Below are positions 730 to 58,072 of a DNA stretch of 58,072 nt, in pieces. How positions within the stretch are numbered: position 1 is the first letter of the stretch; each line of letters begins with the position of its first letter. The notes below the pieces were generated by a model. It was not told the origin of the DNA. It searched no databases and saw only the letters and a program-made list of their open reading frames with translations. Origin of the DNA: a virus. The DNA is taken from positions 1 through 58,072 of IMG/VR virus record IMGVR_UViG_3300017605_000517. The stretch is one strand, 5' to 3'. The translations under genes and the position numbers were made by a program.

Positions 730-831
730 CATTTGGTGGCTAGGGTTCCGGCATGTCATGATTGACGTGTAGGTCACCGACACGGCCTCCTAACCGGGTA
801 CGTCAATTGCCCTGACAACCCCGAAAAGGTG

Positions 832-876
832 GACCCCGGACCAGTGAACGGCTTCCCCCCGAACTGGTCCGGGGTC
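832..876 (+). terminator. Hairpin after the SSB-like gene
   Basis: A perfect 13-bp inverted repeat (GACCCCGGACCAG at 832-844 and CTGGTCCGGGGTC at 864-876) with a 19-nt loop follows the plus-strand replication operon. The tail after the stem is only moderately T-rich, so termination may be partial. The nuclease gene at 900 begins just after it. Confidence 0.6.
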
Positions 877-899
877 TTCCTCATTAGAAAGGAATCGTT

Positions 900-1530: not shown

Positions 1531-1929
1531 TTATTTGCGGTTGTGGTAGCACCGGATAGAACCGGGGGTATTGCGGTGGTTGGTGTCCCTCACTTCACCG
1601 TTCACCTGAAGGACACAATCCAGGTCACCATTCTCGCCCTGGTTTGCGTTCACCATCACCTGAACACCCTTGGGCACGTCTACCTGCCAGTTACCCGGGG
1701 AGTGGGTCATGAGCTCATTGAGTATTTCCACACCACCCACGTTGATCCGGACGATTACCGGCTCTTTGCGGCTATCTGCCGGTTTGAACGTCACAGAGGC
1801 GACAATTCGATCCTCGTTCTCATCTACCGCCCTGGTTGTCACCGTATGGACGATCGCAGCCGCGACGATGGTAACGGCAAACCCCGCGATGATCTGCTTG
1901 TGGATCGGGAGTTTCGTGGTTGATCCCAT
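1531..1929 (-). CDS. MmpS-like membrane-anchored protein
   Basis: The start at 1929 follows AAAGGAGG and gives 132 residues. One transmembrane helix lies near the N terminus (IIAGFAVTIVAAAIVHTV), followed by an exported beta-rich domain ending in LDCVLQVNG...GSIRCYH. A pair of Cys around an NG turn near the C terminus is the pattern of mycobacterial MmpS-like accessory domains, which suggests a disulfide outside the membrane. The protein at 36940-37359 has the same plan. The function in phage is unknown; a role at the host envelope is an inference. Confidence 0.6.
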   Translation of the reverse strand: MGSTTKLPIHKQIIAGFAVTIVAAAIVHTVTTRAVDENEDRIVASVTFKPADSRKEPVIVRINVGGVEILNELMTHSPGNWQVDVPKGVQVMVNANQGENGDLDCVLQVNGEVRDTNHRNTPGSIRCYHNRK

Positions 1930-1951
1930 GTGTTGCCTCCTTTTGCAGTTG

Positions 1952-1996
1952 TTGCCCTGATGTATCAATCCTACGGCAAGGGCCCTCACCCCGCAA
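1952..1996 (-). promoter_or_regulatory. Early promoter with TCAGGGCAAC leader (for 1929)
   Basis: On the minus strand: TTGCGG (1996-1991), a 17-bp spacer, TAGGAT (1973-1968), then ATCAGGGCAA (1961-1952). The -35 hexamer is exactly the loop of the terminator at 1980-2007. Confidence 0.75.
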
Positions 1997-2007
1997 GGTA
2001 AGGGCCC
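1980..2007 (-). terminator. Terminator whose loop is the next -35 box
   Basis: GGGCCCTCACC (1980-1990) and GGTAAGGGCCC (1997-2007) form an 11-bp stem with one mismatch. The 6-nt loop CCGCAA is the complement of TTGCGG, the -35 box of the following promoter. It lies downstream of the gene ending at 2036. Confidence 0.65.
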
Positions 2008-2035
2008 CAGTCGATCTGTCTCCTACCCGACAGAA

Positions 2036-2254
2036 TCAATCCTCACGATCCACGCTCACCGACATGCCGGTAATCGCGAATTGGGTGTGATCCCCAGCAG
2101 TCATGATTTCGAAGGCCAGTGCCTCGTAGATGGCATCCCAGGAGTCCGTGTCGTCCAGGCCCAGGGTATCCACCCATCCCCGACGCGACATCGCTTGTTG
2201 AACCTTAGAGGTGTCCAGCAGTACCGAGAATGTCACCGCGTGCTTCATTGTCAT
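2036..2254 (-). CDS. Hypothetical protein
   Basis: The 72-residue product is not recognised. It begins MTMKHAVTFSVLLDT and contains a Trp-rich middle (RRGWVDTLGLDDTDSWDAIYEALAFEI), with beta-alpha-like composition and no membrane segment. The ATG at 2254 overlaps the stop of the small membrane protein upstream (ATGA), so the two are translationally coupled and share the promoter at 2381-2428. Confidence 0.65.
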   Translation of the reverse strand: MTMKHAVTFSVLLDTSKVQQAMSRRGWVDTLGLDDTDSWDAIYEALAFEIMTAGDHTQFAITGMSVSVDRED

Positions 2255-2358
2255 CGTCCAATCACCGAGAAGAGGATAAGCCCCATCAGAACAACCGCAG
2301 CTGTTCCGACAAACCAGATCGGGTTTGCTACCCGGAGGAGGTTGAGGAGGTGTCGCAT
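2251..2358 (-). CDS. Tiny single-pass membrane protein (35 aa)
   Basis: The ATG at 2358 follows GGAAGGAACGGAAA. The product has a basic N terminus (MRHLLNLLRVANP) and one hydrophobic helix (IWFVGTAAVVLMGLILFSVI). It is the first gene of a two-gene unit with the protein at 2036-2254. Its function is unknown; like other tiny membrane proteins in this genome it may act on the host membrane, which is an inference. Confidence 0.65.
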   Translation of the reverse strand: MRHLLNLLRVANPIWFVGTAAVVLMGLILFSVIGR

Positions 2359-2380
2359 TTTCCGTTCCTTCCGTTCGTCG

Positions 2381-2428
2381 TTGCCCTGACGCGTTAACTC
2401 TACCAGAAGTCCCCCCGCCATCAGGCAA
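2381..2428 (-). promoter_or_regulatory. Early promoter with GTCAGGGCAA leader (for 2358)
   Basis: On the minus strand: TTGCCT (2428-2423), an unusually long 20-bp spacer, TAGAGT (2402-2397), then GTCAGGGCAA (2390-2381). The -35 box lies in the loop of a short stem (GTCCCC 2409-2414 and GGGGAC 2429-2434) that may terminate the gene ending at 2448. Confidence 0.65.
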
Positions 2429-2447
2429 GGGGACCTCATACGTTCGG

Positions 2448-2834
2448 TTACTTTCGGAGCAGTGACTGGAAGATCGGGGAGGCCAATTGGGCGGGAGTCA
2501 GCTTAGGCATCGGAAGGTTCTCCACGCGAGTGACCACGCGAACTTTGGAGTCAGCCACCCGCATTGCCCGATCAGCCGCCCGCTTGCCCGCTCCATTATG
2601 GTCATGGCACAAGCACAGTTTCAACGTGCACGTTCCGTTGCGGTTGGTGCACCTGGGAACCACAGTGGCCGGTGACCACTCCGAAGTGTGCTTGACCACA
2701 CCCCGGTTACCCTCATCCATCGCGCCCGAGGTGTCGATTCCGGCATCACGCAGGTAAGCATCGCGTCGGCATGCCGCGCGGCCTGCGGGGGTCCGGGGGT
2801 GTGAGCAGTTCGAGTGATCAATTCGCGTGGTCAT
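2448..2834 (-). CDS. Basic protein with CxHxxTPxxRAxCR motif
   Basis: The ATG at 2834 follows GGAAGGACAACCGCA and gives 128 residues. Residues ~9-23 carry CSHPRTPAGRAACRR, a Cys/His/Arg motif also present in the proteins at 2933-3514 and 39017-39658. Further on, CTNRNGTCTLKLCLCHDH adds more possible metal ligands, and the C terminus is basic (VRVVTRVENLPMPKLTPAQLASPIFQSLLRK). A nucleic-acid-binding role is inferred from the Cys/His/Arg content. The family is not known to me by function. Confidence 0.65.
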   Translation of the reverse strand: MTTRIDHSNCSHPRTPAGRAACRRDAYLRDAGIDTSGAMDEGNRGVVKHTSEWSPATVVPRCTNRNGTCTLKLCLCHDHNGAGKRAADRAMRVADSKVRVVTRVENLPMPKLTPAQLASPIFQSLLRK

Positions 2835-2858
2835 TGCGGTTGTCCTTCCGGTTGTCGT

Positions 2859-2903
2859 TCGCCCTGATACGAAAACTCTACCATGAAAGAAGCCCCGCAC
2901 CAA
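2859..2903 (-). promoter_or_regulatory. Early promoter with ATCAGGGC leader (for 2834)
   Basis: On the minus strand: TTGGTG (2903-2898), a 17-bp spacer, TAGAGT (2880-2875), then ATCAGGGCGA (2868-2859). The -35 box sits at the loop of the terminator 2891-2912. Confidence 0.75.
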
Positions 2904-2912
2904 GGCGGGGCT
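2891..2912 (-). terminator. Terminator overlapping a -35 box
   Basis: AGCCCCGC (2891-2898) pairs with GCGGGGCT (2905-2912) with a 6-nt loop. It follows the gene ending at 2933. Confidence 0.7.
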
Positions 2913-2932
2913 CTCAACCTTTCGGGTTGTTC

Positions 2933-3514
2933 TCACCCGACATACTCCAGCGGTTCGCTGCAGCACTCCGAGTACTCGGTAACCGGCTCAACGCGTCGCT
3001 GGCATCCAGAGCACTGGTAGTCGCTGGTGACGTCCTTGTTGTGGACGATGACGTTCTCCTCACCCTTCAGCGGGCATTTGTGGGAGTGGATGAGGACCTT
3101 CCCGTCAGTTTCGGGGTTTCCCCCGCACGTACACACCTTCACGATCTCCCCGCGCAGGTCTGTCGCGACGGGTGACCCGTGCTCCGCGCGCACCTTCCGG
3201 CACCGTGCACGAGCCAGAGGGGTCCGGGGGTGGGTGCATCCGGCGTGCGATTCGCGCGACTTAGCAACGGTGTTGGTGTGACCCTTGCGGGGGGTGTACT
3301 CCTCAGCAGCCTCGTTCATCTCGGGGTTGCATAGCCAGCACTCCGACATGGGGATGTACTCATGCCCGTTGTCGTGTGCAATCTCATGTTGGCCCTCGTT
3401 GCCACATGGGTTGCAGAATCCCTGCTTGAGGCAGAATTCCTGATCCTCGTATCCGCTGTTCTTGCCCATTCCGACAGGCCGCTTGTTACAGATGGTGCAG
3501 AGTTTCCGTGCCAT
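2933..3514 (-). CDS. Multi-zinc-finger protein
   Basis: The ATG at 3514 follows AGGAGG and gives 193 residues. CxxC-type pairs occur along the whole protein: CTICNKRP and FCNPCGNEG near the N terminus, ECWLC in the middle, CTCGG, then CSGCQRR and ECC near the C terminus. Between them lies the CTHPRTPLARARCRKVR motif shared with two other proteins of this phage. This composition fits a modular metal-binding adaptor for nucleic acid or protein. No catalytic motif is visible. It is a single-gene unit with its own promoter and terminator. Confidence 0.7.
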   Translation of the reverse strand: MARKLCTICNKRPVGMGKNSGYEDQEFCLKQGFCNPCGNEGQHEIAHDNGHEYIPMSECWLCNPEMNEAAEEYTPRKGHTNTVAKSRESHAGCTHPRTPLARARCRKVRAEHGSPVATDLRGEIVKVCTCGGNPETDGKVLIHSHKCPLKGEENVIVHNKDVTSDYQCSGCQRRVEPVTEYSECCSEPLEYVG

Positions 3515-3533
3515 CGTGTCCTCCTGGTGTTCC

Positions 3534-3579
3534 GTGCCCTGACACCTCAACTCTAAACTCTGATGAGGTCCCAGTGCAA
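3534..3579 (-). promoter_or_regulatory. Early promoter with GTCAGGGC leader (for 3514)
   Basis: On the minus strand: TTGCAC (3579-3574), an 18-bp spacer, TAGAGT (3555-3550), then GTCAGGGCAC (3543-3534). The -35 box is in the loop of the stem 3562-3594. Confidence 0.75.
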
Positions 3580-3594
3580 GTCCGAAACCTCATC
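3562..3594 (-). terminator. Weak hairpin enclosing a -35 box
   Basis: GATGAGGT (3562-3569) pairs with ACCTCATC (3587-3594) and encloses the -35 box at 3574-3579. There is no clear T-run. It lies just after the small membrane protein gene ending at 3609. Confidence 0.45.
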
Positions 3595-3608
3595 CGTTCG
3601 GGTACATC

Positions 3609-3761
3609 TCAAGGAGCGAATGTGCCGACGATTCCGCGTACGGCATCAGGCCACGTGACGTAGGCGAACGCCATCATGGCGTAGCCAATGAGTATCATAC
3701 CGGTAACCAGGGCGAGATAGTACCAGCCTATGTGGGTGTATGGGCGCGAGGGGGAAGACAC
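3609..3761 (-). CDS. Tiny membrane protein (50 aa)
   Basis: The GTG at 3761 follows GAAAGGATC. The sequence MSSPSRPYTHIGWYYLAL begins a hydrophobic stretch (YYLALVTGMILIGYAMMAFAYV) long enough for one membrane helix, and a short tail ends in VGTFAP. It lies between the terminator at 3791-3819 and the promoter of the next gene. Function is unknown. Confidence 0.6.
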   Translation of the reverse strand: MSSPSRPYTHIGWYYLALVTGMILIGYAMMAFAYVTWPDAVRGIVGTFAP

Positions 3762-3790
3762 GGGGGTCGATCCTTTCACTAACTAACAGA

Positions 3791-3819
3791 CCGGGTGCGC
3801 CCTGTCCGGCAGCACCCGG
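3791..3819 (-). terminator. Terminator after the gene ending at 3847
   Basis: CCGGGTGC (3791-3798) pairs with GCACCCGG (3812-3819). It sits between the minus-strand genes ending at 3847 and starting at 3761. No strong U-tract follows. Confidence 0.55.
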
Positions 3820-3846
3820 CCCTCCTTGCGGGGGTTGTGGTCGATT

Positions 3847-4461
3847 TTACGCCTTCATTGCGTTCTTCACAAGCGACACCTGGTCAGCGGTGAGGTGGTA
3901 CCGGTGGCCCTTGCCTACACCCATCCCGAGTGCCCGCAGTTTCACGCGCAGTTCCTTGGCCTCAATTCCGAACACCTCCGCCAGTTCCTTCGTCGTGCAT
4001 CCGTCCAGTTCGGCTACCAGCGCGTCCATCTCCGAGTCCATCTCCAGCCCGGAGTCGTCGGCAGCGTCGTCATCGGGGGTTTCATCGTCGTCCGCGTTGG
4101 TGTCGAGGGAGTCCGTGTTCTCCGGCAGGTCCGTGTGCGCGATCCCGTCCTCAGCAGCCGCAACCTCGATGTCATCGTCCTCGGCGTCAATCACACCTTC
4201 CTCGATCATGTCAGCGAGCATGTCGGCTTCGGTGTCCTCGTCCAGTTCAGCGTCATCGGTGATGACATCCACGAAATCGACCTTCGACAGCGCCCGGCTG
4301 ATGGTCTTGCCGTTGGCGTCCTTCACGTTGAGGCCCACCGAGTTGATCGAGATCAACGCTCCCTCAACCGTGTGTCCGTTGGTCAGGTTGACGGTGGCCT
4401 GCGCGCCCTTGTAGTCCGCGATCATCGTGTGCAGTTCGTTGGCGGTGTTGTAGATTCGCAT
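3847..4461 (-). CDS. Three-part DNA/RNA-binding protein: small beta domain, acidic linker, HTH
   Basis: The ATG at 4461 follows CAGGAGGAA and gives 204 residues. Residues ~18-60 (ATVNLTNGHTVEGALISI...GLNVKDANGKT) have the strand pattern of a small SH3/Sm-like barrel. Residues ~65-150 are a very acidic linker. The C-terminal ~50 residues (CTTKELAEVFGIEAKELRVKLRALG...GKGHRYHLTADQ) look like the helix-turn-helix fold common in actinophage proteins, also seen at 5850-6290. A regulatory or DNA-architectural role is inferred; the Sm-like reading is tentative. Confidence 0.65.
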   Translation of the reverse strand: MRIYNTANELHTMIADYKGAQATVNLTNGHTVEGALISINSVGLNVKDANGKTISRALSKVDFVDVITDDAELDEDTEADMLADMIEEGVIDAEDDDIEVAAAEDGIAHTDLPENTDSLDTNADDDETPDDDAADDSGLEMDSEMDALVAELDGCTTKELAEVFGIEAKELRVKLRALGMGVGKGHRYHLTADQVSLVKNAMKA

Positions 4462-4495
4462 TTTGGGTTCCTCCTGTTTGGGATTTTTCATGTCG

Positions 4496-4541
4496 TTGCC
4501 CTGACACCACTAACGCTACGCGGCCTCTCCAGACGTGTCAA
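4496..4541 (-). promoter_or_regulatory. Strong early promoter with GTCAGGGCAAC leader (for 4461)
   Basis: On the minus strand: consensus TTGACA (4541-4536), a 17-bp spacer, TAGCGT (4518-4513), 7 nt, then GTCAGGGCAA (4505-4496). Confidence 0.85.
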
Positions 4542-4593
4542 CACGAGAGCCCAAGATTTTTATGGATTTACATAACGCCCTGGTCGGGGCATG

Positions 4594-4624
4594 AAAAAGG
4601 GCCGGACCCAAGAAGGCCCGACCC
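4594..4624 (-). terminator. Intrinsic terminator after the DUF2786-like gene
   Basis: GGGCCGGACC (4599-4608) and GGCCCGACCC (4615-4624) form a 10-bp stem with two G-U pairs in RNA, followed on the minus strand by TTTTT (4598-4594). Confidence 0.85.
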
Positions 4625-4642
4625 ATGGGGAACGGTGGGGGA

Positions 4643-5698
4643 TTACCCCTCCAGTGCGGTATGGGGGGTGTCCAAGCGCTGAGCCTGGTCGTGGTTGCGC
4701 GTGATTTCCACCTTGCCAGCGGCCGCACTACCGGCCACCCGACCAGCCTCAGCCGACCGGCCGTTACGGCGCTGGTAGGCGCGCTCATCAGCCTGAGTCC
4801 AGTCCTTGCGCCTACGATCCACCTTGACCGGTGCCTTGGGGATGTTGGCCATCTCCGCCTGCCGTTTGGCGATTTGATCAGCGTTCATCGGCCGGAGGCG
4901 GGGGTAAGCACGGTACTTGGCCTCCTTGATGCGCTCGGCACGTCCAGCCAGCACCACGACTCCGCCCACCGCGTCAGCAGCGTCACGAGCGGCCCTGAGA
5001 CGGTCGTGGAGACGCGATGTGAACCCACGGGCATACGACTCCCGGTACATCTCCGCATCGCTTCCCAGACCCGTCAGGAGCGGTTTCTCCCCGCGCTTGG
5101 TGCATTCCGCGACATACAGCCGCTGGGCCTTCGATCGAAGGGCGGGAGTGTTGGCCTGCCACAGTTTGCGCGCGATGTCCTTACGCAGGATACCGGCCTG
5201 ACGCAGGTTGTACGCGTTCTCCTGGTCCGACAGCCGGGGGTCAACCTGAGGATCAAGGTGTGAGCCGAACACCAGACGAGCTGAGGACCAGAGCCACTCG
5301 GCCATCCGGAGATCTCCTTCATACCCGAACAGGTCAAACCACACCCCGGGGTTGTCCGCTTCGTAGTCGTACCGGCTGACGATTTCGATACCGCTATGTT
5401 CAGCAATGAACCGCATCATCGATGAGTACTCCCCGAAGAATTCGGGGTTCATCCCGAACCCGAAGATAGAGTGCATCACCGGTTCGGCAGTGATCTGGTC
5501 GGTAGCGATCAACTGCTCCTCTTCGATCCGGTACTTGCGCATGATGGCCTCCGCAGTAGCGCGGTAGTTGGCCGCTGACTTGCGGTATCCCTCCGAACTT
5601 TCGGGGTCCTGCTCGCGGTCAGCCGTCTTGTCGGTAGCCTCAGCCGCGTCGATCAGACTTTGAACCTTGGAGATCATGCGAGCCAGTTTGTCGTTCAC
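4643..5698 (-). CDS. DUF2786-like protein
   Basis: The GTG at 5698 follows GGAGGAAACC and gives 351 residues. The N-terminal ~60 residues (KVQSLIDAAEATDK...RATAEAIMRKYRIEEEQL) match the DUF2786 pattern of paired helices ending in a K/R-Y-x-I-E motif. A middle domain (SGIEIVSRYDYEADN...DLFGYEGDLRMAEWLWSS) continues as in other actinophage members, and the C terminus is basic. No biochemical activity is known for the family. It has its own strong promoter and terminator. Confidence 0.7.
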   Translation of the reverse strand: MNDKLARMISKVQSLIDAAEATDKTADREQDPESSEGYRKSAANYRATAEAIMRKYRIEEEQLIATDQITAEPVMHSIFGFGMNPEFFGEYSSMMRFIAEHSGIEIVSRYDYEADNPGVWFDLFGYEGDLRMAEWLWSSARLVFGSHLDPQVDPRLSDQENAYNLRQAGILRKDIARKLWQANTPALRSKAQRLYVAECTKRGEKPLLTGLGSDAEMYRESYARGFTSRLHDRLRAARDAADAVGGVVVLAGRAERIKEAKYRAYPRLRPMNADQIAKRQAEMANIPKAPVKVDRRRKDWTQADERAYQRRNGRSAEAGRVAGSAAAGKVEITRNHDQAQRLDTPHTALEG

Positions 5699-5722
5699 GG
5701 TTTCCTCCATTGGGTTGTGCCG

Positions 5723-5768
5723 TTGCCCTGACAACCCCTACGCTACACGTCCTCGCCAGAACCGTCAA
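5723..5768 (-). promoter_or_regulatory. Strong early promoter inside the upstream gene (for 5698)
   Basis: On the minus strand: TTGACG (5768-5763), a 17-bp spacer, TAGCGT (5745-5740), 7 nt, then GTCAGGGCAA (5732-5723). The -35 is in the coding region of the tiny gene 5743-5853, and the TAG of the -10 box is that gene's stop codon. Confidence 0.85.
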
Positions 5769-5853
5769 CAGAAACAGGGCTGCGCACCAACCGGTATACG
5801 GTCAGCGCGGCAGCCCCAATAAAGAGGACGAGGCAGGCAACCCCGTTTATCAC
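5743..5853 (-). CDS. Tiny single-pass membrane protein (36 aa)
   Basis: The GTG at 5853 overlaps the stop of the upstream HTH-protein gene. The product is nearly all one hydrophobic helix (GVACLVLFIGAAALTVYRLV) with a short acidic C-terminal tail. Its stop codon TAG forms the first three bases of the -10 box for the downstream gene. Function is unknown. Confidence 0.6.
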   Translation of the reverse strand: MINGVACLVLFIGAAALTVYRLVRSPVSVDGSGEDV

Positions 5854-6290
5854 ACCGCGACCCTACGATCAGGCATCTGCGAGATGTGCAGTCCGGCTGC
5901 CATCAACCGCTCCTCTAGTCGAGCGTCCCAGAGTCTGGCCTTGGACTGAACGGCCTTGCGCACGCGAGGATCACGGATGTCAGCCATAACCAGAGGACCT
6001 CCCCGATCCCGATCCTCGTCTGCCCACACCGCCTCGTCCTTCAGACGCTGGGCTGCCGCTTCGTCACACTGCCGGAGAATGGCAGGTGTAGCCGGACGTG
6101 TTGCTGCCGGACGGTTGCCCATCCAATCGCTGAAACGGCGCTCCAATTCGGGAATGTCCGTCTCCGTGAAGACGTAGCGCGATCCCGAACCCACGGCGGT
6201 AAACGTCGACTTGGGGTCACGGAGGAAGCGCCGCAGAATGCGAGGTTCCGTTTGCAGCCGGTTGGCAATGGTCTTCGTGTCGAGCGACAT
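5850..6290 (-). CDS. HTH-domain protein
   Basis: The ATG at 6290 follows AAAAGGGGATCATCA and gives 146 residues. The N-terminal ~60 residues (DTKTIANRLQTEPRILRRFLRD...SGSRYVFTETDIPELERRF) are a helix-turn-helix like the C-terminal domain of the protein at 3847-4461: T-E-P-x-x-L-R-R-F-L followed by an SRY strand. The rest is helical and charged (RQCDEAAAQRLKDEAVWADEDRD). DNA binding, perhaps transcriptional control, is inferred. Confidence 0.65.
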   Translation of the reverse strand: MSLDTKTIANRLQTEPRILRRFLRDPKSTFTAVGSGSRYVFTETDIPELERRFSDWMGNRPAATRPATPAILRQCDEAAAQRLKDEAVWADEDRDRGGPLVMADIRDPRVRKAVQSKARLWDARLEERLMAAGLHISQMPDRRVAV

Positions 6291-6310
6291 TGATGATCCC
6301 CTTTTGAGTT

Positions 6311-6331
6311 ATGCCCTGACGGATGAATCTA
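6311..6331 (-). promoter_or_regulatory. Early promoter with GTCAGGGCAT leader (for 6290)
   Basis: On the minus strand, -10 TAGATT (6331-6326) is followed after 5 nt by GTCAGGGCAT (6320-6311). A -35 box is not clear; the region upstream is a strong terminator hairpin (6342-6359). Confidence 0.6.
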
Positions 6332-6341
6332 CTATTAGGGT

Positions 6342-6359
6342 GGGGGTCCGAAGACCCCC
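6342..6359 (-). terminator. Terminator with a UUCG loop
   Basis: GGGGGTC (6342-6348) pairs with GACCCCC (6353-6359); on the minus strand the loop is TTCG, a very stable tetraloop. It follows the DUF6011-like gene ending at 6364. Confidence 0.75.
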
Positions 6360-6363
6360 TCCA

Positions 6364-7137
6364 TTATGCCTTGCTGGCGCAGGTGGATCCCATTCCGCGA
6401 GCGCGGGACTCCTCGTCGGTCAGGTCCCGTCCACACCGCCAGCACATGCGGAGTTCGTCAGCGAACCGCTTACCCGCAACCTCCGGGGTGTCGCGACGGA
6501 TCTTCTCCAGGATAGCGTCAGCGGCCTTCCAGCCCTTGATGTCGTAAAGTTCGTTGGAAGCCTTGACCTGGACCTTGCGATCACCGGACCGCTTCCAGGT
6601 GGACACCCGGTAGAACCCCAGCACGCCCTCTTCCGTGTCAACGGCATAGTAGCCGTCCGGCACATCAGCGAACGGGTCACGCGGGGTGGTGTCCGGGACA
6701 TAAGCGGGTCGCTGATCAGTGATGTTGCACTGGGGACCGTAAGGCGCACCGTGGGTGCACACCACACCATGTGCGGGGGTCGGCATGGGAGTGGTGTTGC
6801 CCGACTCTGCGATGCGGACACGGAGACGGTTGATCGCCGGGGAGATGTCGCCCTTCTTGATCGTGTCGCGCTGGGTTGTCCACCAGGCCGCTGCCTGCGC
6901 GTGAACCGTGGGGTTGACCTGCGCCAGTTGCGCAAGCAGGCGCTCGAACTGATTCTTGGCAGCATCCGAAGCGTTATCCCCGAAGTGCCGCATCTCGGTC
7001 ATTTCACGAGTGCCCGCAGCCGGTGTGCGCTTCGTGGCAGCCTTTGCGCGATTGCGTGCGATGGCGGCCTCCTTGGCCTCGTCACGCCGGATGTCCGCAG
7101 GCTTGAGTTCGTGCTGGGTGTAGAAAATGGTGGTCAT
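6364..7137 (-). CDS. DUF6011-like protein with C-terminal zinc motif
   Basis: The ATG at 7137 follows AAAAGGGGAACTCCG and gives 257 residues. The C-terminal ~25 residues (CWRCGRDLTDEESRARGMGSTC) match the short DUF6011 zinc-binding motif, which sits at the end of many actinophage proteins. Residues ~155-215 (DGYYAVDTEEGVLGFYRVSTWK...) form a beta domain seen in the same context, and the N terminus is helical and basic. The function is unknown; nucleic-acid binding is inferred. Confidence 0.7.
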   Translation of the reverse strand: MTTIFYTQHELKPADIRRDEAKEAAIARNRAKAATKRTPAAGTREMTEMRHFGDNASDAAKNQFERLLAQLAQVNPTVHAQAAAWWTTQRDTIKKGDISPAINRLRVRIAESGNTTPMPTPAHGVVCTHGAPYGPQCNITDQRPAYVPDTTPRDPFADVPDGYYAVDTEEGVLGFYRVSTWKRSGDRKVQVKASNELYDIKGWKAADAILEKIRRDTPEVAGKRFADELRMCWRCGRDLTDEESRARGMGSTCASKA

Positions 7138-7163
7138 CGGAGTTCCCCTTTTCAGATGTCGTC

Positions 7164-7223
7164 ATGCCCTGACATCACCTACGCTACGGCAGCGGTGTGT
7201 CCGATGTCAACCCCCGATGTCAA
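7164..7223 (-). promoter_or_regulatory. Strong early promoter with duplicated TTGACATCGG (for 7137)
   Basis: On the minus strand: TTGACA (7210-7205), an 18-bp spacer, TAGCGT (7186-7181), 7 nt, then GTCAGGGCAT (7173-7164). A second copy of TTGACATCGG lies 13 bp upstream (7223-7214), too far for a -35 here; it may be a regulator site. Confidence 0.8.
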
Positions 7224-7286
7224 CTCGGCCTTGTCGGAGAATATGCTAAAATTTCGCTCAGTCCTAGTTTAAAACGGACAAAGAGG

Positions 7287-7359: not shown

Positions 7360-7896
7360 TTAGGACGAACGCCTACGGGTGGCCTTGGGTTTGGGAGCGG
7401 GGGCTTCCTCGGCAGCCGCCTTGGCCTTTTTGCCCTTGGCAGGCTTGGTCTCCTCCTCGGCCTCATCCTCGTCCTTGGCCTTTTTGCCAGCCTTGGCGGC
7501 GCTCAAGCGCTCCTTCTTGGCCTCCTCGACCTCACCGGCCCTCACACGCTTGATGACGGCCTTCACGGTCCGGTCATTCTCGCCGGTGAACGAGTAGCGA
7601 GCGCGGTCGGTGCCAACCTCGCGCTCAATATCACCATCAGCGGCCATCTTGCGCAGGATCACCCGCACGTTGGCCGGAGTGAGCTCGGTGCCGAGCGTCT
7701 CATTGACGTGATCGGCGAGCCACGCCGCACCCATGCCATTGGTCTCGGCCTTCTCCTTCTTGGCCGGAGCCGATGTCTTGGCGGACTTGCCCTTACCCTT
7801 GGCAGGCTTCGGGTCGTCCTCGTCCTCCGCGTCTTCGACCAGTTCCAGACCGTCGTCCTCGAGTTCCTCGACAGCCGGAGCGCTCTTTTTTGCCAT
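7360..7896 (-). CDS. Lysine/alanine-rich protein with winged-helix core
   Basis: The ATG at 7896 follows GGGGGTACGAAC and gives 178 residues. Acidic and K/A/P-rich flanks surround a folded core at ~50-110 (GMGAAWLADHVNETLG...NVRVILRKMAADGDIEREVGTDRARYSFT) that reads as a winged helix. The C terminus is K/A/E-rich and ends RRRSS. The plan of a DNA-binding core with disordered charged arms resembles nucleoid-associated proteins, so DNA compaction or broad regulation is inferred. It is the first gene of the leftward early-type region. Confidence 0.65.
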   Translation of the reverse strand: MAKKSAPAVEELEDDGLELVEDAEDEDDPKPAKGKGKSAKTSAPAKKEKAETNGMGAAWLADHVNETLGTELTPANVRVILRKMAADGDIEREVGTDRARYSFTGENDRTVKAVIKRVRAGEVEEAKKERLSAAKAGKKAKDEDEAEEETKPAKGKKAKAAAEEAPAPKPKATRRRSS

Positions 7897-8436: not shown

Positions 8437-8802
8437 TTACGATTCTCTCGCGGTGCCGTCAATGGTGCGTACACCCACGTTTTCCTGGAGATACACAGAA
8501 GCACCCATCGGCTTCCACACCCCGAAGTGCATGAGTGAGGCAATGCTGAAGTTGATTGCCAGGTTCATCAGGAACGGCACCCAACCGAAGTTGATGTAAT
8601 CGCTTCCGTTGGCAATGAGGGCTTCCACGGTGGTCTTGACCGCAACCACAACTAGAAGTAGAGTACCCTTAGCCCTTGCCGAGGTCACCCGTGTGGTGAT
8701 GACCGCGACGGCTAGAGGCAGGAGAACAGTGATGATGAGGGAGAACATGCCTGCCGCATTCGCTGTGAACGCGTACACCGGCAGCTCAGGTAATGTGTCC
8801 AT
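8437..8802 (-). CDS. Holin-like membrane protein
   Basis: The ATG at 8802 follows GAAGGGAAAT and gives 121 residues. Three hydrophobic segments are visible (~18-38, ~45-62 and ~75-92), with a short charged C terminus. Size, topology and position at the end of the lysis cluster, after the endolysin and two other membrane-associated proteins, fit a holin that permeabilises the inner membrane. The assignment is by topology and context, since holins do not share sequence motifs. Confidence 0.6.
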   Translation of the reverse strand: MDTLPELPVYAFTANAAGMFSLIITVLLPLAVAVITTRVTSARAKGTLLLVVVAVKTTVEALIANGSDYINFGWVPFLMNLAINFSIASLMHFGVWKPMGASVYLQENVGVRTIDGTARES

Positions 8803-38912: not shown

Positions 38913-38948
38913 TGGCCAAGAATAGACCGAACGGATGAGGTATTCCTC

Positions 38949-38993
38949 TTGCTATTCTGCACGCGTTCTCTATACAATAGAAGCACAGGGCAA
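38949..38993 (+). promoter_or_regulatory. Promoter with CAGGGCAA leader (for 39017)
   Basis: TTGCTA (38949-38954), an 18-bp spacer, TACAAT (38973-38978), then CAGGGCAA (38986-38993) at the transcription start, the same initial sequence as the left-arm promoters but on the plus strand. A strong ribosome site (GAAGGAGAA) follows. Confidence 0.65.
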
Positions 38994-39016
38994 TCGACAA
39001 CCGAAGGAGAACCGAA

Positions 39017-39658
39017 ATGAACCTCACCGACATCCCCGCTGACAAGATCGCGAAGGCCGCCAACACGATCAAGAAACTGGCCTACACGATCGCCGCGATT
39101 GGCACCGTGGCCTCGTACGGCACGCAGGCATCGCTCCTCGCCGCGAACGGCCTGGGCATGTTCTCTTACGCCATCCCGCTGACCATCGACCTCCTGGCGA
39201 TCGGTGCCGCGATGGCGCTGCAACTGCCCCGGATCAACATCCCCGGTATCAACATCGAAGGCCTGCGCAAAATGGCCGGGACGATCCTCACGGTTGCCGT
39301 GATCGTCTCCATCCTCGCGAACGTGTGGGACGCGCACTCCCCCATCGCGGCTGTTGCACACGCGTGGCCGGTCGTGGCCTACCTGCTCGGAGAAATGCTG
39401 GCCAACAAGGTGCGGGCCTACGCCGACCGCCTCCAGATGGCTGTGCAGGCCGCCACTGCCGCCCCGGTTACCCCCGTTGTGGTTCCGACCCCCGCCCCGG
39501 TGGTTGCTCCCGTTCAGGTGGCCCAGCCGCTCCCCACCGCCACGGTTCGCACCCGCAAAGCCACCCCGACCGCGACAACTCGCAAGGCCACATCGCACGC
39601 GGCGTGCACCCACGCCACCACCCCAGCTGGTCGCGCTGCCTGCCGCGCTGGCCGGTAA
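39017..39658 (+). CDS. DUF2637-like membrane protein with C-terminal Cys/His motif
   Basis: The 213-residue protein has membrane helices at ~20-40, ~45-65 and ~85-105 and the DUF2637/SpdB-like sequence (IAAIGTVASYGTQASLLAANGLGMFSYAIPLTIDLLAIGAAMALQ), a family known from actinobacterial conjugative plasmids. A Pro/Ala/Val-rich linker follows, and the end is HAACTHATTPAGRAACRAGR, the same CxHxxTPxxRAxCR motif as two left-arm proteins. The strong promoter and ribosome site predict high expression. Its function in phage is unknown. Confidence 0.75.
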   Translation: MNLTDIPADKIAKAANTIKKLAYTIAAIGTVASYGTQASLLAANGLGMFSYAIPLTIDLLAIGAAMALQLPRINIPGINIEGLRKMAGTILTVAVIVSILANVWDAHSPIAAVAHAWPVVAYLLGEMLANKVRAYADRLQMAVQAATAAPVTPVVVPTPAPVVAPVQVAQPLPTATVRTRKATPTATTRKATSHAACTHATTPAGRAACRAGR

Positions 39659-57076: not shown

Positions 57077-57896
57077 AACTGAATACTCCAAGATAGCCAA
57101 ACAGAAGATCCGGAATCCAGGTGAGGAGCCTCGCGAACCGCGCCTCCTGGTGTACGGACGGAACAAAAAGGGCAAGACCACCTTCGGCAACAGTGCGCCG
57201 GATGTGTTGGCCCTCGATCCCGATGATCAGCCATCGGCGCTGAAACCCACCTGGCCTATCAACCAGTGGGAGGATATGCACGAGGCGTATCAGTACCTCA
57301 GGGCAGGGAACCACCCTTACCGCTGGGTCAACATGGACGGACTCACCGGTATCTACCGACACGCCTTCAACTGGGTGGCACACCAGAAGGGCGAGAAGGA
57401 GATTACCAAACGTCCGGAGCAGAAGAAGATCCAGTATTACGGGCAGGCCAATCAAGCCTTTGAGAACATGATCCAGAACTTTCACTCACTCCGGCACATG
57501 GGTATCGTTTTCACCGCTCATGAAAAGATGGTGCCGGTAGTTGAGTTGATCGCGGGTAAGCCTATGTCGGTTTCTGACGATATGGAAGACGACGAGGATT
57601 ACACACCAACCAGTTACCAGTACATCGTGTCGTTGCCCAAGGGTGCGCGAGCAGCCATCAACGGCATGGTTGACCTCACCGGACGTATCTATGTGGTGCG
57701 CGGTAACTTTGAGCGCCGGGTGAAGGTCGATGGCAAGTGGACAACTGAAGAGTACACCAAGCAGCGCCGGTTGTTCATCGGGGTTGACGACATGTACGAA
57801 ACCGGGTACCGGAGCGAACACCTGCTGCCGGACATAATTGAAGACCCTACCGTTCGGAGAGTGGTCAGGGCGTTGAGAACAGGAGAGATCAAATGA
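57066..57896 (+). CDS. Sak4-like RecA-fold ATPase
   Basis: About 276 residues from the GTG at 57066. The P-loop is VYGRNKKGKTTFG (residues ~27-39), and the Walker B-like DPDDQP and WVNMDGLTGIY and the VFTAHEKMV strand are as in phage Sak4/AAA ssDNA annealing or recombination ATPases. It is preceded by a PD-(D/E)XK nuclease and followed by an SSB-like protein, forming a recombination module. The start overlaps the upstream gene by 11 bases. Confidence 0.8.
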   Translation: MASKTEYSKIAKQKIRNPGEEPREPRLLVYGRNKKGKTTFGNSAPDVLALDPDDQPSALKPTWPINQWEDMHEAYQYLRAGNHPYRWVNMDGLTGIYRHAFNWVAHQKGEKEITKRPEQKKIQYYGQANQAFENMIQNFHSLRHMGIVFTAHEKMVPVVELIAGKPMSVSDDMEDDEDYTPTSYQYIVSLPKGARAAINGMVDLTGRIYVVRGNFERRVKVDGKWTTEEYTKQRRLFIGVDDMYETGYRSEHLLPDIIEDPTVRRVVRALRTGEIK

Positions 57897-58072
57897 CGGT
57901 CAAGGCGAAGATCCTCGACTTCAGCGGTGTGGAAGACAAGGCGGGGGGATTCCGGCCACGTAGGAAGCCGGAGGGCGACTACTACGCTCGAATCACGGCG
58001 GTGGCTGACCACGAGAGCAAGGAGGGCAACCACGGCTGGGTATTTACGGTTAAGGTGGACGGTGACGTTCGC
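57893..58072 (+). CDS. ssDNA-binding-like protein, N-terminal part (gene crosses the circle join)
   Basis: The ATG at 57893 overlaps the ATPase stop (ATGA). The 60 codons here (MTVKAKILDFSGVEDKAGGF...) continue in frame at base 1 because 57932-58072 repeats 1-141. See the entry at 1-729 for the full protein. Confidence 0.8.
   Translation, partial: MTVKAKILDFSGVEDKAGGFRPRRKPEGDYYARITAVADHESKEGNHGWVFTVKVDGDVR
57932..58072. repeat. Terminal direct repeat, right copy
   Basis: Exact copy of bases 1-141; see that entry. Confidence 0.9.

What the first reader, a model, noticed from the sequence alone, without database searches (positions are those of the whole stretch)
1952..7223. Repeated promoter cassette with conserved initial transcribed sequence TCAGGGCAAC
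At least eight minus-strand promoters share TTGACR-like -35, 17-20 bp, TAGNNT, 5-7 nt, then (G/A)TCAGGGC(A)A at the predicted +1. A plus-strand copy stands before 39017 and a weak one before 37948. The constant place relative to -10 suggests an operator at +1 or a leader element that a phage or host factor reads.
Basis: seen in the sequence. Interest (0 to 1): 0.65.

Follow-up and report, generated by a model that had tools for sequence, protein, structure and literature searches.

The report
Phage leader tag matched by antisense RNA
A seven-letter tag (UCAGGGC) at the start of about ten messages of an uncultured phage of actinobacteria is matched, base for base, by an apparent small RNA gene of the same phage; a sister lineage has a different tag with an equally changed matching RNA, which suggests the phage controls its own genes by RNA pairing rather than by a protein bound at its promoters.

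Summary
The repeat is real. RTCAGGGC stands in front of eight minus-strand genes, 6-8 nt after a TANNNT -10 box; only three of the eight have a good -35. It is the most frequent leader 7-mer in the window and in relative G014, and recurs in relative G001.

The motif is not a +1 element. Leaders without a -10 keep it, and one copy lies in coding sequence as rare GTC-AGG codons in three phages where seven relatives use other codons. It sits mostly 28-35 nt before start codons.

Its exact complement, GCCCTGAC, lies 75-79 nt after the stop codon of the SSB-like gene, just before a terminator, in four phages. In a sister lineage the same locus holds a predicted small-RNA gene whose 5' end, CGUUGUCCCGAU, pairs (11-12 of 12) with four leaders carrying a different tag, (AU)CGGGACAACG; three of these genes are orthologues or likely counterparts of tagged genes here. 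Tag and anti-tag changed together, as expected of RNA-RNA pairing.

Best explanation (0.70): the tag is the target site of a phage-encoded trans-acting sRNA. One tagged gene encodes a predicted Hfq-fold protein, a candidate helper. There are no expression data; the direction of regulation is inferred.

The parts
7134..7210 (-). Cassette 1: TTGACA-18-TAGCGT-8-G|TCAGGGC (7172-7166), leader 35 nt to ATG of 6364-7137 (DUF6011 protein); tandem TTGACA and conserved AATTTTAGCATA upstream
   Evidence: conserved in G001 and G014
6287..6331 (-). Cassette 2: hairpin GGGGGTC-TTCG-GACCCCC, TAGATT-6-G|TCAGGGC (6319-6313), leader 29 nt to ATG of the HTH gene 5850-6290; orthologous leaders in G001 and G014 keep hairpin and TCAGGGC without a -10
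5696..5768 (-). Cassette 3: TTGACG-17-TAGCGT-8-G|TCAGGGC (5731-5725), leader 33 nt to GTG of 4643-5698 (phrog_421)
4459..4541 (-). Cassette 4: TTGACA-17-TAGCGT-8-G|TCAGGGC (4504-4498), leader 43 nt to ATG of 3847-4461; best conserved cassette (CGTTAGTGGTGTCAGGGCAAC identical in three genomes)
3512..3555 (-). Cassette 5: TAGAGT-7-G|TCAGGGC (3542-3536), leader 28 nt to ATG of 2933-3514 (zinc-finger-like)
2832..2880 (-). Cassette 6: TAGAGT-7-A|TCAGGGC (2867-2861), leader 33 nt to ATG of 2448-2834
2356..2402 (-). Cassette 7: TAGAGT-7-G|TCAGGGC (2389-2383), leader 31 nt to ATG of a 35-aa membrane-like peptide
1927..1973 (-). Cassette 8: TAGGAT-7-A|TCAGGGC (1960-1954), leader 31 nt to ATG of 1531-1929 (membrane-like)
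38973..39019 (+). Plus-strand cassette: TACAAT-6-ACAGGGC (38985-38991), leader 32 nt to ATG of 39017-39658 (DUF2637); conserved in G001
57864..57895 (+). Tag without promoter, G|TCAGGGC (57865-57871), inside the 3' end of the Sak4-like gene as codons GTC-AGG-GCG, 28 nt before the ssb start; kept in G001 and G014 while seven relatives use other codons
809..816 (+). Anti-tag GCCCTGAC in the 3' UTR of the SSB-like gene, 79 nt after its stop codon; at 78, 76 and 75 nt in G001, G014 and G003
730..885 (+). Proposed sRNA (3'-UTR-derived): SSB stop codon to terminator, anti-tag predicted in a small stem-loop
   Evidence: inference; no Rfam family
832..876 (+). Terminator-like hairpin that ends the proposed sRNA
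3847..4461 (-). Gene of a 204-aa protein: N-terminal Sm/Hfq-like fold (residues 8-70) plus C-terminal IF2_N/HTH-like domain; candidate RNA-binding helper
57893..58072 (+). Start of the SSB-like gene; it continues at 1-729 (the contig ends overlap by an identical 141 bp)

Best explanation
RTCAGGGC is the target site of a phage-encoded, trans-acting antisense small RNA. The RNA lies in the 3' UTR of the SSB-like gene at the end of the rightward replication operon and ends at a terminator hairpin. Its GCCCUGAC anti-tag pairs with GUCAGGGC at or near the 5' end of about ten phage mRNAs, about 31 nt before their start codons. Most tagged genes have their own SigA-like promoter whose predicted start puts the tag at the 5' end of the mRNA; others are read through from upstream. 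Likely effect, inferred: when the replication operon is transcribed, the RNA lowers translation or stability of the tagged genes, mainly small non-structural leftward genes and ssb itself, as a timing switch; stabilisation by pairing at the 5' end is the less likely opposite. The Hfq-fold protein behind cassette 4 may assist. Shown by sequence: tag, anti-tag, their conservation, and their joint change between two lineages. Inferred: transcription of the sRNA, pairing in the cell, direction of control, role of the Hfq-fold protein.
For: (1) Tag enrichment and sense-only orientation. (2) Independence of promoters: no -10 in the HTH leaders of G001 and G014; copy 57865 kept in coding sequence as GTC-AGG in three genomes, against CGN or GGN codons in seven relatives, with AGG 8% of Arg codons; of the other coding copies that can be aligned to G001 only one keeps all seven bases. 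(3) Anti-tag GCCCTGAC at 75-79 nt after the SSB stop and just before a terminator in four genomes, although the intervening sequence is unalignable in most pairs. (4) Sister lineage L078/L080: promoter TTGACG-17-(G/C)ATACT directly after the SSB stop, 5' end CGUUGUCCCGAU, terminator; ATCGGGACAACG occurs three times in each 20-kb locus, in two leaders and opposite the sRNA. TCGGGAC was already a top leader 7-mer there before the link was seen. The four best of 29 leaders by duplex energy are the four CGGGAC leaders in both genomes, among them the HTH and DUF2637 genes, both tagged in the window. (5) In the window the nine best leaders by duplex energy with the anti-tag segment are tag leaders, the best one being the anti-tag locus's own opposite strand. 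(6) In L078/L080 the opposite strand of the locus has no SD or start, so the sRNA strand is the meaningful one. (7) 1-mismatch tags are not enriched (11 seen, 9.3 expected), as expected if the site must match a seed.
Against: No transcript data. Two lineages only; L078 and L080 are close sisters and count once, and shuffled-seed tests there are modest (0.03-0.05). No clear sRNA promoter in G000, G001 or G014, so processing from the ssb mRNA must be assumed. Relatives G007, G010, L081 and L084 have a similar RNA-like locus but no repeated leader tag was found, only anti-SD loops. A broad count of complementary k-mers between the whole 3' UTR and leaders was noisy. In G014 the anti-tag is predicted partly paired (unpaired 0.31). 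The hypothesis was reached post hoc.
Confidence: 0.7

Rival explanations
1. RTCAGGGC is a DNA site for a phage regulator (repressor or roadblock, stoperator-like) at transcription starts, gene ends and the SSB 3' UTR; its specificity has drifted in the sister lineage.
For: Most copies overlap predicted starts; one orientation relative to transcription; some overlap gene ends, as described for stoperators (PMC4351075, PMC13313380). HTH proteins are encoded next to the tags.
Against: Seven bases are short for a DNA site: 24 copies in 58 kb, many plainly in coding sequence and not conserved. No dyad. Not stoperator-like in sequence. The SSB-3'UTR copy is in the antisense orientation in both lineages, with an sRNA-type promoter and terminator around it in L078/L080. 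Complementarity extends to 11-12 nt with a G-U wobble. No integrase match in the window.
Confidence: 0.13
2. The tag is an RNA element read by a protein (the Hfq-fold protein or a host RNA-binding protein) or by the ribosome as a translation enhancer, without an sRNA.
For: Fixed distance to the start codon, mostly 28-35 nt; Hfq-fold protein in the same gene block; precedents: SAS of Cluster K phages (PMC3203893) and the T7 gene 10 enhancer (PMC8748333).
Against: No GCCCTGA in two actinobacterial 16S or one 23S locus, and duplex energy no better than shuffles. It does not explain the conserved complement after ssb or the joint change in L078/L080. The Hfq-fold protein is also present where the tag is absent.
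Confidence: 0.1
3. The tag is an initial-transcribed-sequence or promoter-escape element of the phage's SigA-like promoters, as first suggested.
For: 19 of 27 copies lie 6-8 nt after a TANNNT box.
Against: Promoterless conserved copies; the purine before the tag is also present in the promoterless copies, so it is not explained by start-site choice.
Confidence: 0.04
4. The 809-816 site is only a ninth minus-strand leader (for an antisense ORF) and its match to the tags is ordinary repetition; the tag's reader is unknown.
For: In G000 it has an SD and a GTG with a 68-aa ORF; G001 has TAGGGT at the right distance.
Against: No -10 in G000, G014 or G003; no consistent start codon or ORF in G001, G014 and G003; the antisense ORF arises automatically opposite an acidic low-complexity tail. 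It does not explain the L078/L080 sRNA match.
Confidence: 0.08

Closest known systems
Phage-encoded trans-acting base-pairing sRNAs (reviewed in PMC12197685: PreS of lambda, c4 of P1/P7, VpdS, AgvB)
   Same: Small RNA gene of a phage with an intrinsic terminator; short complementarity to mRNA leaders
   Different: Here one RNA appears to match a repeated tag in about ten of the phage's own mRNAs, in a phage of actinobacteria, with lineage-specific seeds; no expression data
Mycobacterial 6C sRNA (Mai et al. 2019, cited in PMC8628891)
   Same: Actinobacterial sRNA with C-rich loops that pairs with several mRNAs; the relatives' terminator loops show CCUCCUCGG, complementary to SDs
   Different: No Rfam match; here the main seed is a lineage-specific tag, not only the SD
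Cluster K mycobacteriophage SAS/ESAS (PMC3203893, PMC11373665)
   Same: Short repeated sequence tied to gene starts; ESAS contain SigA-like promoters
   Different: SAS is 13 bp, 3-9 nt from the start; ESAS carries 15-17 bp inverted repeats; no antisense RNA reported in the passages read
Cluster A stoperators (PMC13313380, PMC9283540)
   Same: Many asymmetric copies in one orientation, between genes or at gene ends
   Different: 13-14 bp with TGTCAAG core, bound as DNA by the immunity repressor; here 7-8 bp, tied to start codons, with a conserved complement after ssb
Hfq/Sm family
   Same: Predicted fold of residues 8-70 of the 204-aa protein (Z 9.4 to S. aureus Hfq, 58 residues, 1.3 A)
   Different: Fused to an acidic linker and an IF2_N/HTH-like domain; 17% identity; oligomerisation and RNA binding untested

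Membership tests
Trans-acting base-pairing sRNA | Complementarity between a stretch of the RNA and leaders of unlinked mRNAs, beyond chance | tested here: met
   Window: best-4 duplex mean -30.0 against shuffled -18.9 (0 of 60 as good, though the best leader is the locus's own opposite strand); top four leaders in L078/L080 are the four tag leaders
Trans-acting base-pairing sRNA | Joint change of seed and target between lineages | tested here: met
   GCCCUGAC/GUCAGGGC against CGUUGUCCCGAU/AUCGGGACAACG, HTH and DUF2637 targets shared; one contrast only
Trans-acting base-pairing sRNA | Own promoter or processing site, and terminator | tested here: inconclusive
   Promoter and terminator in L078/L080; in G000, G001 and G014 terminator only
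Trans-acting base-pairing sRNA | Expressed RNA that changes target expression | not testable with these tools
   Uncultured phage, no RNA data
Cluster A stoperator | 13-14 bp asymmetric site with TGTCAAG core | tested here: not met
   Conserved core is CAGGGC; logo falls off outside positions -1 to +8
Cluster K SAS/ESAS | GGGATAGGAGCCC 3-9 nt before the start; 17-bp inverted repeats in ESAS | tested here: not met
   Different sequence, mostly 28-35 nt before the start; -35/+1 inverted repeat not significant
Sm/Hfq fold (204-aa protein) | alpha1-beta1..5 Sm barrel | tested here: met
   AlphaFold2 model, pLDDT about 90 over residues 21-60, order H7-17, E21-26, E31-39, E43-47, E53-57, E61-66; nearly all of the top 50 PDB rows are Hfq or Sm proteins
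Sm/Hfq fold (204-aa protein) | Ring oligomer that binds RNA | not testable with these tools
   Single-chain model only

The most novel reading that the evidence does not exclude
A self-contained phage riboregulatory system in actinobacteria: a phage sRNA from the ssb 3' UTR switches off (or on) a regulon of about ten phage mRNAs through a shared 5' tag, helped by a phage-encoded Hfq-like protein, with tag and seed co-evolving into lineage-specific pairs.
Probability: 0.35. Interest if true: 0.88.

Novelty: new variant of a known kind. Interest (0 to 1): 0.72.

Why it matters
Repeated intergenic tags in actinophages (SAS, ESAS, Cluster O repeats) are described as being of unclear or unknown function in the papers read here. 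A tag whose reader is an RNA of the same phage, with matched changes between lineages, would give one such repeat a testable mechanism and suggest looking for antisense copies of other phages' tags. No Hfq orthologue has been found in M. tuberculosis (PMC8628891), so a phage gene with an Hfq fold next to an sRNA regulon would be of interest to RNA biologists and as a tool.

Tried and rejected
Operator dyad between -35 TTGACAY and +1 RTGTCA: looked convincing by eye, permutation P 0.11. Purine before the tag as a sign of the start site: also present in promoterless copies. Pairing with 16S or 23S rRNA: none. Consensus hairpin in all leaders (GUCA..UGAC): only about half of the copies, no covariation. 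Own gene caller for leader statistics: poor start choice, replaced by SD-led ORFs. Broad k-mer matrix of whole 3' UTR against leaders across genomes: too noisy to separate lineages. Pattern scans of IMG/VR for promoter plus tag: nearly all single chance hits, except G001 and G014. Tag in cultured phages: no significant DNA match. Rfam: no family. Search for third-lineage tags in G007, G010, L081 and L084: no repeated tag, only anti-SD loops. Literature search for a phage Hfq-like protein: no hit.
Full report
WHAT IS THERE. The window is a 58,072-bp phage contig whose ends repeat 141 identical bases, so it closes into a circle. Its proteins mark it as a siphophage of actinobacteria: portal, terminase, capsid, tape measure, DNA polymerase, SSB-like protein, DUF2637, WhiB-like protein. 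No integrase match was found. The nearest isolates are only distantly related. Eight minus-strand leaders carry RTCAGGGC 6-8 nt after a TAGNNT box. Three have a strong -35; in several others the upstream gene's hairpin overlaps the would-be -35. A ninth copy, ACAGGGC, stands before 39017.

MORE THAN CHANCE. In leaders (-45 to -20 of SD-led ORFs) TCAGGGC is the most frequent 7-mer in the window: 9 of 24 genomic copies, P about 1e-9. Against 200 composition-matched 7-mers it scored 22 leaders in three genomes; the best other 7-mer scored 9. One-mismatch forms are not enriched.

RELATIVES. G001 (IMG/VR 3300049055_000031, capsid 79% identical) and G014 (3300043313_000589) carry the same tag in leaders. 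More distant phages with orthologous genes (G007, G010, L078, L080, L081) do not. G003 lacks the region because the contig is partial.

THE TAG IS NOT A PROMOTER PART. Over 27 copies in three genomes, 19 have TANNNT 6-8 nt upstream and 8 do not; the distance to the start codon is mostly 28-35 nt. For the HTH gene, G001 and G014 keep hairpin plus TCAGGGC with no -10. A plus-strand copy at 57865 lies in the end of the Sak4-like gene, 28 nt before the ssb start. It is read as GTC-AGG-GCN in all three tag phages, whereas seven relatives have CGN or GGN codons there; AGG is 8% of Arg codons. Of the other coding copies that align with G001, one keeps all seven bases.

THE ANTI-TAG. The copy at 809-816 has no promoter in G000, G014 or G003 and no consistent downstream ORF. 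Read on the plus strand it is GCCCTGAC in the 3' UTR of the SSB-like gene. In G000, G001, G014 and G003 it lies 79, 78, 76 and 75 nt after the stop codon and just before a terminator-like hairpin, although the 75-79 nt in between are unalignable in most pairs.

THE SISTER LINEAGE. After the same ssb gene, L078 and L080 have TTGACG-17-(G/C)ATACT, then CCGUUGUCCCGAUCGG at the predicted 5' end, then a strong terminator. Their top or joint-top leader 7-mer was TCGGGAC, noted before this link was seen. Four leaders carry the CGGGAC tag: the orthologue of the window's HTH gene, a DUF2637-type gene like 39017, a CxHPxTP zinc-finger-like gene, and one more; each pairs with 11-12 of 12 bases of the RNA's 5' end, one with a G-U wobble. 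These are the four best of 29 leaders by duplex energy in both genomes. In the window the nine best are all tag leaders, the best being the locus's own opposite strand. ATCGGGACAACG occurs in each 20-kb locus only in two leaders and opposite the RNA gene. Four further relatives have an RNA-like locus at the same place, with hairpin pairs that change on both sides and loops complementary to SDs, but no repeated tag.

MECHANISM. Tag and anti-tag being kept together, and changing together at partly the same target genes, is what RNA-RNA pairing predicts; a DNA operator or a protein-read leader does not predict the complement after ssb. I therefore take the tag as the target site of a trans-acting phage sRNA. 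Inferred: that the RNA is made (from the ssb mRNA here, from its own promoter in L078/L080), that it pairs in the cell, and that it lowers expression of the tagged genes once the replication operon is on. Pairing at an mRNA's 5' end could instead stabilise it.

A POSSIBLE HELPER. The gene behind cassette 4 encodes a 204-aa protein. Its N-terminal part is predicted as an Sm/Hfq barrel: pLDDT about 90, VIA-align Z 9.4 over 58 residues at 1.3 A to S. aureus Hfq, nearly all of the top 50 rows Hfq or Sm proteins; profile hits to LSM and Sm chains are weak. The C-terminus resembles IF2_N/HTH domains, below cut-off. It also occurs in relatives without the tag, so it is not specific to it. Its link to the sRNA is conjecture.

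WHAT IS KNOWN. Phage sRNAs that pair with mRNAs are known (PMC12197685). Repeated start-linked sequences are known in actinophages: SAS/ESAS in Cluster K (PMC3203893, PMC11373665), palindromic repeats in Cluster O (PMC4351075), stoperators in Cluster A (PMC13313380). Defining features of SAS/ESAS and stoperators were tested and not met. M. tuberculosis has no known Hfq orthologue (PMC8628891). I found no report of this tag, this RNA or a phage Hfq-fold protein in the library searched; the library is partial.

LIMITS. No expression data; one independent seed/tag contrast; modest shuffle statistics in L078/L080; no clear sRNA promoter in the tag lineage; the idea arose after seeing the data. A third and fourth lineage would be the cheapest strong test.

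Noticed in passing
window 3847-4461 (-) and orthologues in L057, L089, L068, L084, L078, L080, L081, L079, L066: 204-aa protein with predicted Sm/Hfq barrel, acidic linker and IF2_N/HTH-like C-terminus, conserved in the whole phage group, also where the tag is absent.
   Followed up: partly
window about 8440-8462 (-); L062, L066, L081, L084, L085: A second promoter type, TTGACG-17-TAATRT without the tag, near or before the gene orthologous to 7360-7896, shared with relatives that lack TCAGGGC; partly conserved sequence CACCRWAACAAG downstream.
   Followed up: no
window 7205-7260 (-): AATTTTAGCATA invariant in three genomes upstream of cassette 1, next to a tandem repeat of TTGACA.
   Followed up: no
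L078, L080, L085 (promoters listed): These relatives have their own set of repeated promoters with GTCTCAC in the -35/-10 spacer and leaderless starts ATGACGAAC directly at the predicted +1.
   Followed up: partly
L062, L075, L084, L078, L080, L081 after the ssb stop codon: Terminator hairpins with apical CCUCCUCGG or similar, complementary to the phages' own SD context, at the end of RNA-like loci.
   Followed up: partly
window 3590-3542, 2445-2389, 38920-38960: CGAACGNATGAGGT repeated upstream of cassettes 5 and 7 and of the plus-strand cassette; a similar CATTCGTATGAGGC in G001 before its 39017 orthologue.
   Followed up: no
window cassettes 2, 5, 6, 7, 8: Hairpins of the upstream gene enclose the position of the -35, so terminator and next promoter overlap in a very short gap.
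   Followed up: partly
window 2448-2834, 2933-3514, 39017-39658: Unrelated proteins share a short motif CxHPxTPxxRAxCR at different places (N-terminal, internal, C-terminal).
   Followed up: no
L113-L116: Capsid relatives (34-39% identity) in genomes of Nocardioides and Aeromicrobium, a hint to the host group.
   Followed up: no
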